A stretch of DNA of 64,000 nucleotides from Priestia megaterium NBRC 15308 = ATCC 14581 (GTDB taxonomy: Bacteria > Bacillota > Bacilli > Bacillales > Bacillaceae_H), in NCBI RefSeq assembly GCF_000832985.1, contig NZ_CP009920.1:1178001-1242000 (forward strand). Direction: 5' to 3'. Positions 4,928 through 55,497 of this stretch are shown piece after piece. The position numbers and the translations under genes are program-made. The stretch's first letter is position 1; each line of letters begins with the position of its first letter. A model generated the notes under the pieces. It saw nothing but the letters and a program-made list of their open reading frames with translations, did no database searches and was not told the origin of the DNA.

Positions 4928-4986
4928 GACATGGCAGGCATATTTAATAAACGTTCATCACATTAGGTTTTGAACGCTGAACCTCC

Positions 4987-5122
4987 ACCTTCTCCCATCC
5001 AGACTGTACTGTCGGCTTTGGAATTTCACCAAATCTGCTCGTATGTATTACATATAAGCTCGCGGGCTCAAAACAATTTGTTTTTTACCGCCGGTCGGGA
5101 ATTTCACCCTGCCCCGAAGATA
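4987..5122 (-). promoter_or_regulatory. FMN riboswitch (RFN element)
   Basis: The minus strand carries the conserved RFN blocks in order: CTTCGGGGCAGGGTGAAATT, CCCGACCGGCGGT, GAGCCCGCGAGC, GGTGAAATTCC, and CCGACAGTACAGTCTGGATG. It precedes ribU and its attenuator. Established function: FMN binding lowers expression of riboflavin transport. Confidence 0.97.
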
Positions 5123-5145
5123 GACCAATATTTAATTATGAATTT

Positions 5146-10497: not shown

Positions 10498-10712
10498 AGA
10501 GGTTGAGACGCAACGAAATCCATGCAATCTACAGCTGAATAAATAAAATAAAGAAGCTAGTAGGGATCGCTTGTTCCACGGCTATAAGCACCTACATACA
10601 CGAACTTTGCGTTCACCATCTCAATGAAAAAATCCGAACGAATGAGATTCTCCATCAAGAAGCTCATTCGTTCGGATCTTTCTTCAACTAAAATATCTTC
10701 GTTTCAGGCTCT
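10498..10712 (-). repeat. Dispersed modular terminator-bearing repeat, copy A
   Basis: This 215-bp element fills most of the resC-resD gap. Read on the minus strand it starts AGAGCCTGAAACGAAGATAT. It then has a hairpin with 15-bp arms (ATCCGAACGAATGAG / CTCATTCGTTCGGAT) followed by TTTTTTC, and ends ATTTCGTTGCGTCTCAACCTCT. The two ends are imperfect inverted repeats. The hairpin and flanking words are shared with copies at 36529-36872 and 55138-55279. It starts 17 nt after the resC stop. No coding content. Confidence 0.8.
10623..10682 (-). terminator. Hairpin plus T-run within repeat copy A (resC terminator)
   Basis: On the minus strand, ATCCGAACGAATGAG pairs exactly with CTCATTCGTTCGGAT around a 16-nt loop, then TTTTTTC. 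It is predicted to end resABC transcripts before resDE. Confidence 0.8.
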
Positions 10713-10728
10713 ATGCTATTATTAAAGG

Positions 10729-11907
10729 TTACGCATATGAATGTAAACCTGCAATAATTAGGTTCACAGCCACTAAGTTGAACATAATGATGGCAAATCC
10801 GCCAACTGCCAGCCAAGCTGATTTTTCACCGTGCCACCCTTTCGACAGCCGAAGATGAAGAAAAGCGGCGTAAAATAAAAAGGTGATCAGCGCCCACACC
10901 TCTTTAGGGTCCCACCCCCAAAAACGCGTCCAGGCCATCTGAGCCCAAATCATAGCGAAAATAAGTGCTCCTAGTGTGAAAATAGGAAATCCAATCGCCA
11001 CTGCTCTGTAGCTTACTTCATCAAGCAAGTCGCTGTTTACCTGTTTCACAAGCGGCTGCAGCGCAGCTCCAATTCGCTTCCGTAAAATAAGACGAATCAG
11101 CCAATATAAGACGAATCCACCAGCTAACGACCAAATGACCGTATTTAATTTTTTAGCATTGATAATAGCGGGCATATCAATAAGCGGCTGTATATCGTTC
11201 CCATCTGTCCATTCACTTTGATGCGGCCCCACTAGCGGAACCATATGATACACGGCTTGCTCTTGTTCTCCACTTTTATTAATCCAATTAAATGATGACT
11301 CGTAGTGTGCCGCATTAAAAGCCAGCGTCACCGCTACAAACCCAAGAGTACTAATAAGCGTATACAGGATGAATTCCAGCCAAAATGCTTTTTTATTTCG
11401 CTTGGATTGGTCAATCGTTTTGATTAAATAAATCAATCCTGCAACAAAGCTAATAGAAAGCACGGCTTCACCCGTAGCTGCGGTTGTAACGTGAATATGC
11501 AGCCAATTCGTTTGCAGAGCCGGTATCAGCGGCGTAATTTCAGTTGGAAACATGCTTGCATAAGCAATGATCAAAAGAGCCACCGGCAATGCAAAAAGTC
11601 CAAGCATGCTAAGACGATAAATAAAGTAAATAACAATAAATGCGCCAACAAGCATCATGCCAAAAAACGTCGTAAATTCAAATAAATTACTAACAGGAGC
11701 GTGGCCTGATGCAATCCATCTTGTAATGAAGTAGCCAATCTGTGCAATAAAGCCGATGATGGTAACCGCAATTCCAAACGTTGCCCACTTTGTTTTCTTT
11801 TGAGCTGCTCTCTTATCTCGAATAGCTCCTCCGAAAAAAAAGGTTGCAACTAAATAAGCAATAAACGCCACATACAGTAAATTACTACTTATACTCGCGT
11901 AATCCAT
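10729..11907 (-). CDS. resC: Cytochrome c biogenesis protein ResC (CcsA/CcsB type)
   Basis: 392 residues with about eight membrane segments. It has the tryptophan-rich heme-handling motif [14 protein letters not shown] and conserved histidines in the surrounding helices (for example [24 protein letters not shown]). With ResB it forms the System II heme-export/ligation complex that attaches heme to apocytochrome c on the outer face of the membrane. SD AGGAGG. It directly follows resB (11-nt gap). Confidence 0.95.
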
Positions 11908-36496: not shown

Positions 36497-36609
36497 CAAG
36501 AATCTTTTGAATCTATCAAATAAAAAAAGAGAATGAGACATAATAAAATCAACCCAATCTAAATAAGATCAAATGAGATAGTATGGATGGCTTGTGAAAC
36601 GGCTGTCGA

Positions 36610-36740
36610 TTTCCATGCAAGGCTTCGCTTTCCGCGGGCCGCCGGTGACCCTCTTCGTCGCGTACGCTTCTGCGGGGTCTCACCTATTCCGCTTTTCCCG
36701 CAGGAGTCTTCGCCTTGCCCTCCAATCAACCGCTAGAACC
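36610..36740. repeat. GC-rich imperfect palindromic module nested in copy B
   Basis: AAGGCTTCGCTTTCCGCGGG at 36619-36638 is mirrored by CCCGCAGGAGTCTTCGCCTT at 36698-36717, with CTGCGGGGTCTCACC between. GC content is far above the flanks. It resembles the CCGCGGG...CCCGCAGGAGTC repeats I recall from several Bacillaceae genomes. Copies A and C lack it. Confidence 0.7.
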
Positions 36741-36776
36741 AACTATATAAATGAAATCTACATTCACCATCACCTT

Positions 36777-36840
36777 AAAAAAATCCGAACGAATTTGATT
36801 CTCCATCAAGAATCTCTATTCATCGTTCGGATTTTCCTTC
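36777..36840 (-). terminator. Hairpin plus T-run within repeat copy B (nudF terminator)
   Basis: ATCCGAACGA pairs with the region of TTCGTTCGGAT, followed by TTTTTTT on the minus strand, 135-200 nt after the nudF stop. Confidence 0.65.
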
Positions 36841-36974
36841 AACTAAAATATGGTTGTCAAACATTTTTTTAGTTAGAGATACACGCATGCCTGTTTTTTC
36901 TCACATCAAATGACGTTTCAATGTAAACCTCTAAATTGCTAGATTGCCGTTCGTATGTAAAAGAAAAAACTCTC

Positions 36975-37526
36975 TTACTCTCCTAATCCGCTTTTTAACT
37001 GTAAGTACTGCACAGCATAGGCTGTTTTTGCATCATAAATTTCCTTGTTTTGAATAAGAGTAAGCGTCTCATCTACCGTAACTTCCATCACTTCAACAAA
37101 TTCATCTTCGTCTAATTCCGCTTTGGTGGTCATCACTTTTAAATCTTCCGCTAAATAAAGGTGCACCAACTCATCCGCAAAACCTGGTGATGTATAAAAA
37201 GAAATAATATGGCTAAGCGAATCTGTTGTATAGCCTGTTTCTTCTTCTAACTCACGTTTTGCCGTCACAATCGGCTCTTCTCCTTTTTCTAGCTTGCCGG
37301 CTGGAATTTCGACTAAAATACGATCCATCGGCCTGCGATACTGTTTGACCATAACCATTTTATGGTCGCTTGTTAACGCAATGACAGCTACGGCTCCAGG
37401 GTGCTTAACTACTTCTCTTGTACTCGTTTTTCCGTTTGGAAGCTCTACTTCTTCTAAGTACAAATCAATCACTCTGCCTCCAAACAGCTTTTCAGAAGAC
37501 AGCATTTTTTCTGTTAAATGATCCAT
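36975..37526 (-). CDS. nudF: ADP-ribose pyrophosphatase (Nudix) NudF
   Basis: 183 residues with the Nudix box AGKLEKGEEPIVTAKRELEE continuing ETGY (GX5EX7REUXEEXGU). The N-terminal beta domain (SEKLFGGRVIDLYLEEVELPNG) is typical of ADPRases. Hydrolyses ADP-ribose to AMP and ribose 5-phosphate. SD GAGGTG. Divergent from mciZ. Confidence 0.93.
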   Translation of the reverse strand: MDHLTEKMLSSEKLFGGRVIDLYLEEVELPNGKTSTREVVKHPGAVAVIALTSDHKMVMVKQYRRPMDRILVEIPAGKLEKGEEPIVTAKRELEEETGYTTDSLSHIISFYTSPGFADELVHLYLAEDLKVMTTKAELDEDEFVEVMEVTVDETLTLIQNKEIYDAKTAYAVQYLQLKSGLGE

Positions 37527-55137: not shown

Positions 55138-55279
55138 GAGATTGAAACATAATTAAAATTCCAATCAACAGCTAGAAGCACCTTCGTATATGAAACCTAC
55201 GTTCACCCTGCCAATAAAAAAATCCGAACGATTCACCGTTCGGATCTTCCTTCAGCTAAATTAATTTTGTCCCAGCCTC
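55138..55279 (-). repeat. Dispersed modular terminator-bearing repeat, copy C
   Basis: 142-bp short version. On the minus strand it begins GAGGCTGGGACAAAATTAAT 6 nt after the 70-residue gene. It then carries ATCCGAACG GTGAAT CGTTCGGAT TTTTTTT and ends ATTATGTTTCAATCTC. The ends are imperfect inverted repeats (GAGGCTGGGACAAAAT / GAGATTGAAACATAAT, 11 of 16). The words GCTAGAAGCACC and ACGTTCACC are shared with copies A and B. Confidence 0.8.
55215..55250 (-). terminator. Hairpin plus T-run within repeat copy C (hydA operon terminator)
   Basis: ATCCGAACG / CGTTCGGAT stem with a 6-nt loop, then seven Ts on the minus strand. Confidence 0.85.
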
Positions 55280-55284
55280 CGTTT

Positions 55285-55497
55285 TTATACTTGTTGAATC
55301 AGTACGGATGAAAAATATTTTCTAGCATCCGCCGTCAATATATGAAGGGTTTCTTGTTCGGTTTGGTTATTTTCGGTGCGTTCAAACGTCACAAATGCCC
55401 CGCTTAGATTCTCCGTTACGGCTGTTATTTTAAATCCTTTTTGCAGCAAAAAATCAATCTTTTCTCGCTCTGCCATATATTCATGGTAACTTGACAT
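55285..55497 (-). CDS. Small protein, last gene of the preTA-hydA operon
   Basis: 70 residues, MSSYHEYMAEREKIDFLLQK start with SD GGCAGGGA. It follows hydA by 33 nt, so it is probably co-transcribed. Mixed alpha/beta pattern (FKITAVTENLSGAFVTFER), no Cys cluster, no membrane segment. Family not recognised; a pathway role is only suggested by position. Confidence 0.65.
   Translation of the reverse strand: MSSYHEYMAEREKIDFLLQKGFKITAVTENLSGAFVTFERTENNQTEQETLHILTADARKYFSSVLIQQV

What the first reader, a model, noticed from the sequence alone, without database searches (positions are those of the whole stretch)
10498..10712. A family of dispersed repeats that act as portable terminators
Three intergenic elements (10498-10712, 36529-36872, 55138-55279) share a hairpin ATCCGAACG...CGTTCGGAT followed by a T-run on the minus strand. 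They also share flanking words (TCCATCAAGAA, ACGTTCACC, GCTAGAA) and imperfect terminal inverted repeats (GAGGCTGGGACAAAAT-like and GAGATTGAAACATAAT-like). All three lie just after the stop of a minus-strand gene (17, 102 and 6 nt away) in the same orientation relative to it. This is MITE-like architecture plus a fixed position bias at 3' ends. The sharing and orientation are seen directly; mobility is inferred.
Basis: partly seen in the sequence, partly recalled or inferred. Interest (0 to 1): 0.75.

Follow-up and report, generated by a model that had tools for sequence, protein, structure and literature searches.

The report
Mobile element that replaces gene terminators
A short mobile DNA repeat in Priestia (the megaterium group) appears to swap itself into the stop signals at gene ends, removing the old stop hairpin and bringing its own, which may let it spread at gene ends with little harm.

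Summary
The three repeats belong to a family with at least 147 copies in this Priestia genome (capped) that is abundant in 5 of 10 Priestia genomes searched. Copies have imperfect terminal repeats and, at one end, a strong hairpin plus T-run. In 121 of 125 copies whose flanks were fetched, that end follows the stop codon of a co-oriented gene, at a median of 8 nt.

Comparing 364 kb with 340 kb of a second strain gave 15 element sites, 11 of them polymorphic. At 11 of 11 the strain without the element has an unrelated ordinary terminator hairpin in the slot; no element allele keeps it. No target duplication was seen. Of 235 mappable terminator-like hairpins in that strain, 225 are conserved in this one, and 8 of the 10 changed ones are element swaps.

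This is the published footprint of IS1272 (IS1182 family) stem-loop-replacing transposition, here in a non-autonomous element that trades each terminator for its own. Four of the five element-rich genomes gave no IS1182 transposase match and the fifth only a doubtful one. Termination was not tested on RNA. New variant of a known kind.

The parts
10498..10712 (-). Element copy 1 (no GC-rich module in this strain). Far-end repeat about 10499-10513, gene-side repeat about 10697-10711.
   Evidence: present in G007, G009 and G001; replaced by an unrelated hairpin in G003
10632..10677 (-). Terminator-like hairpin of copy 1 with T-run on the minus strand
   Evidence: (folds at -36.1 kcal/mol over 93 nt, z -5.6)
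10729..11907 (-). Gene whose stop lies 17 nt before copy 1
36529..36872 (-). Element copy 2, with the GC-rich module; gene-side terminal repeat decayed (about 36849-36863)
   Evidence: full in G009, module deleted in G007, truncated in G001, unrelated sequence with a hairpin in G003
36604..36734 (.). GC-rich module inside copy 2, also found in other Bacillaceae (approximate limits)
36783..36832 (-). Terminator-like hairpin of copy 2
   Evidence: (z -3.2)
36975..37526 (-). Gene whose stop lies 102 nt before copy 2
55138..55279 (-). Element copy 3 (short form). Terminal repeats 55138-55152 and 55265-55279.
   Evidence: present in G007, G009 and G001; replaced by an unrelated hairpin in G003
55222..55245 (-). 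Terminator-like hairpin of copy 3 (short-stem form)
   Evidence: (z -3.2)
55285..55497 (-). Small ORF (70 aa) whose stop lies 6 nt before copy 3

Best explanation
The repeats are copies of a non-autonomous mobile element (a MITE) that transposes into intrinsic terminators and replaces them. Seen from the gene it follows, the element reads: A-tract, GAGGCTGGGACAAAA, about 20 nt, a strong hairpin with a T-run, a body of about 70-260 nt that may hold a GC-rich module, TTATGTCTCAATCTC, T-tract. A trans-acting transposase of the IS1182/IS1272 kind would join the element at the feet of a resident terminator hairpin, whose stem-loop is lost, with no target duplication. Because the element carries its own terminator next to the gene, the cell keeps termination; insertions in the opposite orientation are largely absent, presumably removed by selection. 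Shown: copy number, structure, orientation, position, polymorphism, and exchange of an unrelated hairpin for the element. Inferred: that a transposase of this kind did it, that the element's hairpin terminates in vivo, and that selection makes the orientation bias.
For: At least 147 copies. Upstream gene co-oriented in 121 of 125 copies with flanks, median 8 nt from stop to element, the place where ordinary terminators of the genus sit (median 7 nt, 40 gene-end distances). 11 of 11 polymorphic sites between G000 and G003 have an unrelated terminator-like hairpin in the other allele (dG -11.6 to -22.9), and no element allele keeps it in the slot. A-tract and T-tract are shared by both alleles in the clearest cases, e.g. 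AAAAG-CCGCTTAAGCGG-CTTTTTT against AAAAG-AGGCTGGGAC...CTCAATCT-CTTTTTT. Hairpins of G003 mapped to G000: 225 of 235 conserved; of 10 changed, 8 are element swaps and 2 lie inside elements. At the copy 1 site all 5 Priestia genomes without model matches at 1e-6 have an ordinary hairpin, so the hairpin is probably ancestral. Terminal repeat agrees at 13 of 17 with the terminal repeat of an IS1182-family element in G008. Hairpin plus T-run in 121 of 125 copies although the hairpin sequence falls into at least two classes (103, 13 and 9 others). IS1272 precedent for hairpin replacement without duplication: PMC5678879 and PMC4923244 (passages).
Against: No IS1182-family transposase found in G000, G001, G003 or G009, and only a 19.6-bit match (cut-off 270) in G007; PF05598 in none of G000, G003, G007. 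The two IS1182 copies found on P. megaterium plasmids have quite different ends. The two terminal repeats agree at only 11 of 15. Base-pair changes in the outer stem are not more compensatory than shuffles; only the inner stem of one length class covaries. The model was built on the hairpin, so the 121 of 125 is partly circular. At the G003:C2:369150 site G003, G007 and G009 have the element and G000 alone the hairpin, so one gain does not explain every site. No RNA data.
Confidence: 0.8

Rival explanations
1. No transposase: the element spreads by recombination or template switching between terminators, using the A-tract and T-tract that flank both ordinary hairpins and the element as short homologies.
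For: Borders lie at the A- and T-tracts; no target duplication; no matching transposase in the element-rich genomes.
Against: Such a process should also spread ordinary hairpins. Of 235 mapped hairpins of G003, none of the 10 changed ones is one ordinary hairpin exchanged for another. In the other direction 195 of 208 were conserved and 13 changed; 5 of the 13 are element-related, and of the other 8 rechecked 3 are the same or similar, 1 is a shorter form of the same stem, 1 is a weak inverted repeat with a partial match, and 3 were not found in G003; I did not check those 3 for a different hairpin. The ends resemble IS1182-family ends.
Confidence: 0.12
2. The element inserted next to the resident terminator, which then decayed because it was redundant.
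For: Would also give element alleles without the old hairpin.
Against: At 11 of 11 sites the old hairpin is gone although the strains are about 96% identical, and at the clear sites the flanking tracts are intact with no remnant. The one shared 9-mer (site 31022) lies in the neighbouring gene.
Confidence: 0.04
3. The element is ancestral at these sites and the hairpin alleles are later replacements or imports by strain recombination.
For: At the G003:C2:369150 site three genomes have the element and one the hairpin; recombination between strains is likely to have moved some alleles.
Against: The hairpins are unrelated to each other while the element is one family; 5 of 5 outgroup genomes have ordinary hairpins at the copy 1 slot. 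At the copy 4 slot (G000:C6:1251455) the outgroups are mixed: I saw a clear hairpin in G002 only and an element-like end at a contig end in G004.
Confidence: 0.03
4. The shared hairpin word is an uptake-type or other sequence signal that happens to sit in terminators, as DNA uptake sequences do in Neisseria and Haemophilus.
For: ATCCGAACG occurs in many short hairpins.
Against: Copies share 145 or more aligned positions with terminal repeats; 13 of 125 copies carry a different hairpin (AACGAACCA type) in the same body.
Confidence: 0.01

Closest known systems
IS1272 (IS1182 family), 'inverted repeat-replacing' or 'stem-loop-replacing' transposition, Wan et al. 2017, PMC5678879 (abstract and passages seen)
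   Same: Targets are hairpins of unrelated sequence; the target hairpin is replaced; no target duplication; some insertions immediately downstream of genes; ends probably begin GAGGCTGAGACG (taken from a primer printed in the paper; 10 of 12 to this element)
   Different: IS1272 is a 1.9-kb insertion sequence with a transposase, 14-15 copies per genome; this element is about 115-350 nt with no gene, in 147 or more copies, and carries its own terminator
TnSha1 / IS1272, Furi et al. 2016, PMC4923244 (passages seen)
   Same: Inserts into hairpins, several confirmed as terminators by RNA-seq, and deletes part of them
   Different: Paper reports both orientations at one target; here the orientation is 82 against 2 where neighbouring genes are in tandem. 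TnSha1 carries a gene; this element does not
Bacterial MITEs (bcr1, RUP, BOX, Correia and similar; recalled, not tested here)
   Same: Short, non-coding, terminal inverted repeats, many dispersed intergenic copies
   Different: Typical MITEs duplicate a short target; this one removes a hairpin and makes no duplication
Stem-loop sequence families of Petrillo et al. 2008, PMC2267715 (passages seen)
   Same: Systematic finding of repeated stem-loop families in bacterial genomes, some possibly terminators
   Different: B. megaterium does not appear in the text (0 occurrences); no exchange of terminators described in the passages seen

Membership tests
IS1182/IS1272-type hairpin-replacing elements | Target is a hairpin of any sequence | tested here: met
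   11 of 11 polymorphic sites have a terminator-like hairpin in the other allele, all unrelated
IS1182/IS1272-type hairpin-replacing elements | Target hairpin lost, no target duplication | tested here: met
   No hairpin kept in 11 of 11; no duplication seen in the alignments inspected
IS1182/IS1272-type hairpin-replacing elements | Terminal inverted repeats of the family | tested here: inconclusive
   13 of 17 to an IS1182-family repeat in G008, 10 of 12 to a stretch of an IS1272 primer, but another IS1182 branch on Priestia plasmids has different ends
IS1182/IS1272-type hairpin-replacing elements | Transposase gene of the family, in the element or in the same genome | tested here: not met
   NF033551: none in G000, G001, G003, G009; a doubtful match in G007; present in G004, G006, G008. 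A non-autonomous element needs one only at the time of moving, so it is not filed as an IS1182 member, only as working like one
MITE | Short, no transposase gene, terminal inverted repeats, many copies | tested here: met
   At least 147 copies; T-end AAAAAAGAGGCTGGGACAAAA, far end TTATGTCTCAATCTCTTTTTT; far end with 3 or fewer mismatches in 87 of 125 against 2 of 125 in reversed sequence (at 5 or fewer mismatches 108 against 80, which does not discriminate)
MITE | Target-site duplication (usual, not universal) | tested here: not met
   Alignments at polymorphic sites show replacement
Intrinsic terminator | GC-containing hairpin followed by T-run, just after a stop codon in gene orientation | tested here: met
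   121 of 125 (partly circular since the model includes the hairpin); T-run of 5 or more in 72 of 79 with exact stem; 121 of 125 after a co-oriented gene. The simple scan did not report copy 3, whose stem is followed within the pairing by its T-run
Intrinsic terminator | Transcripts end there | not testable with these tools
   No RNA data
Known Rfam RNA family | Match above the gathering score | tested here: not met
   Only an FMN riboswitch elsewhere in the window

The most novel reading that the evidence does not exclude
A mobile element whose niche is the intrinsic terminator: it lands only on terminators, deletes them and substitutes its own, so that an estimated 150-200 gene ends of one chromosome now end in the same imported terminator. 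The terminator inside the element is itself an exchangeable cassette: different hairpin classes sit in the same body, and in a related element of G008 that slot holds an IS1182-family element. This would be terminator-for-terminator exchange as a low-cost strategy of a selfish element.
Probability: 0.65. Interest if true: 0.78.

Novelty: new variant of a known kind. Interest (0 to 1): 0.68.

Why it matters
Hairpin-replacing transposition is described for IS1272 in staphylococci, with few copies and no repair of the lost terminator. Here the same footprint occurs at 11 of 11 polymorphic sites examined in a harmless, genetically tractable genus, at high copy number, with an element that appears to restore what it destroys. 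It offers many natural before-and-after pairs to ask how much the sequence and strength of a terminator matter to a gene, what makes a hairpin a transposition target (cruciform DNA, single strands at forks or transcription), and whether supplying a function lets a mobile element escape selection. It also warns that terminator conservation between strains can be broken by mobile DNA.

Tried and rejected
Ordinary MITE insertion with target duplication: rejected on the alignments. Phage origin: no match of copy 1 in the phage collection. Known RNA family: none for the elements. IS1182 transposase as local partner: looked for with PF05598 in 3 genomes (none) and NF033551 in 10 (only G004, G006 and G008 carry clear matches). 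IS1182 branches of Priestia plasmids as partner: the two copies compared share ends beginning TGAATTAATTTCATAA, unlike the element. IS1182 copies of other plasmids (Sporosarcina, Alkalihalophilus, Parageobacillus, Lactiplantibacillus) gave no terminal repeat of the GAGGCTG kind by my scans. Compensatory change in the outer stem: not above shuffles. Search for the element in print; no listed title or abstract start describes it; apart from the papers named I saw listings only.

In the 235-hairpin control, 31 of 266 G003 hairpins had no mappable flanks and were set aside.

Full report
WHAT IS THERE. The genome is of the Priestia megaterium/aryabhattai group: a window gene is 99% identical to P. 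aryabhattai B8W22 at the protein level over its best segment, and the surrounding 11.6 kb is 95.7% identical. The window is G000:C6:1178001-1242000 of a 5.75-Mb assembly. BLAST with copy 1 alone found 40 scored copies among 151 candidates (64 rows, many being the palindromic hairpin read on the other strand). An alignment of 29 copies gave a covariance model that finds 147 distinct copies in the genome (150 candidates scored, so a lower bound). In the 364 kb of this chromosome read in full there are 13 copies, which would extrapolate to about 190 on the 5.34-Mb contig (inference).

DISTRIBUTION. At E 0.001, G002, G004 and G008 gave 7, 10 and 18 weak matches (best E 5.3e-6), which I did not examine one by one. 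Ten plasmid records match copy 2, four of them Priestia; the others match mainly the GC-rich module. No phage record matches copy 1.

ANATOMY. Read in the direction of the gene it follows, the consensus is AAAAAA-GAGGCTGGGACAAAA, about 20 nt, hairpin, T-run, body, TTATGTCTCAATCTC-TTTTTT. The far-end word is present with at most 3 mismatches in 87 of 125 copies against 2 of 125 in reversed sequence; at 5 mismatches the test does not discriminate (108 against 80), so the lengths measured that way (mostly about 115-350 nt) are rough. 58 of 125 copies have words of the GC-rich module. A terminator-like hairpin is present in 121 of 125 copies (partly circular because the model contains the hairpin). 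It is not one sequence: 103 copies have the ATCCGAACG type, 13 an AACGAACCA type in the same body, 9 others. Among 79 copies with an exact outer stem, 72 have a T-run of 5 or more. In the 17 copies with a 28-nt interior the inner stem covaries (outermost pair: 0 of 1000 shuffles); over the alignment of 29 copies the structure kept 98.3% of pairs but showed no excess of compensatory change (230 of 500 shuffles as high).

POSITION. Of 147 copies I had flanks for 125. In 121 the gene upstream of the hairpin end points the same way: 82 tandem, 39 convergent. Two lie reversed between tandem genes and two between divergent genes. The median distance from stop codon to element is 8 nt in the 121 (range -23 to 524, with my own ORF calls). 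Ordinary terminators in 140 kb of G003 lie at a median of 7 nt (40 gene-end distances).

THE KEY COMPARISON. I aligned 364 kb of G000 with 340 kb of G003. There are 15 element sites: 4 shared, 9 with the element only in G000 (including all three window copies), 2 only in G003. At 11 of 11 polymorphic sites the other allele has an ordinary hairpin with T-run, dG -11.6 to -22.9 kcal/mol, all different in sequence. None of the 11 element alleles keeps that hairpin in the slot; one shares a 9-mer with it, but in the neighbouring gene well beyond the element. In the clearest cases the A-tract on the left and T-tract on the right are the same in both alleles and only what lies between is exchanged. 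Copy 2 is the least clean: G003 there differs over about 110 nt. No target duplication was seen.

CONTROLS. Are terminators simply fast-changing? Of 266 terminator-like hairpins in the G003 blocks, 235 had mappable flanks and 225 were conserved in G000. Of the 10 changed, 8 are element swaps and 2 lie inside elements. In the other direction 238 hairpins, 208 mapped, 195 conserved, 13 changed: 5 element-related; of the other 8 rechecked, 3 are the same or similar (scores 0.67-0.97), 1 is a shorter form of the same stem, 1 is a weak inverted repeat with a partial match (0.53), and 3 were not found in the G003 interval. I did not check those 3 for a different hairpin, so I cannot say that ordinary terminators never exchange, only that element swaps dominate.

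DIRECTION OF CHANGE. At the copy 1 slot the five Priestia genomes without model matches at 1e-6 (G002, G004, G005, G006, G008) all have an ordinary hairpin. At the copy 4 slot (G000:C6:1251455) the picture is mixed: I saw a clear hairpin in G002, an element-like end at a contig start in G004, nothing conclusive in the others. At the G003:C2:369150 site G003, G007 and G009 have the element and G000 the hairpin, so either loss by recombination with another strain or repeated gain occurred there. Taken together, hairpin to element is the more economical direction, since the hairpins are unrelated and the element is one family (inference).

MECHANISM. Replacement of hairpins of any sequence without target duplication is the published behaviour of IS1272, IS1182 family (PMC5678879, abstract and passages; PMC4923244, passages, which adds that several targets are RNA-seq-confirmed terminators and that both orientations occur). 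The element's terminal repeat agrees at 13 of 17 with that of an IS1182-family element in G008 and at 10 of 12 with a stretch of an IS1272 primer printed in PMC5678879. G008 also has a related short element (24 of 28 at the hairpin-side end in L200; also L191 and L207) in which the IS1182-family sequence sits where ours has its terminator. Against: none of G000, G001, G003, G009 has a detectable IS1182 transposase, and G007 only a 19.6-bit match against a cut-off of 270. I therefore say that it works like an IS1272-type element, most likely as a non-autonomous element moved in trans by a transposase since lost or carried on other replicons; I do not file it as a proven IS1182 member.

VERDICT. 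Observation confirmed; interpretation supported and sharpened: portable terminators that replace terminators. What is shown is sequence exchange; what is inferred is the transposase and the termination itself.

Noticed in passing
window 4983-5125 (-): FMN riboswitch (RF00050, 130.9 bits).
   Followed up: no
window about 36604-36734: GC-rich module inside copy 2 that also occurs on plasmids of Bacillus badius, Peribacillus, Niallia and Cytobacillus; it looks like a separate, wider repeat nested in the element. In G007 it is deleted from copy 2.
   Followed up: partly
L255:2021-2203: On a P. megaterium plasmid a 'hypothetical protein' is annotated within the stretch matching the element, probably a spurious gene; copy 2 likewise holds a 92-aa ORF at window 36594-36872.
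   Followed up: no
G000 copies at C6:343276, 3386538, 4064619, 5217694 and others (13 of 125): A second hairpin class (AACGAACCA...TGGTTCGTT) sits in the same element body: the terminator behaves as an exchangeable cassette.
   Followed up: partly
L191, L200, L207 (G008): Related short element with an IS1182-family sequence in the slot where the terminator would be; that IS1182 sequence has a hairpin plus T-run at its own end (L198).
   Followed up: partly
G003 genome: Fewer copies (44 at 1e-6) but the highest-scoring ones, as if G003 had a more recent, separate expansion.
   Followed up: no
L266 (G004:C3, start of contig): At the copy 4 slot this outgroup contig begins with TGTCTCAGTCTCTTTC, like the far end of the element: perhaps an independent insertion at the same terminator.
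   Followed up: no
L250 and L251 (P. megaterium plasmids): IS1182-type transposase copies with different ends (TGAATTAATTTCATAA...), a separate branch.
   Followed up: partly
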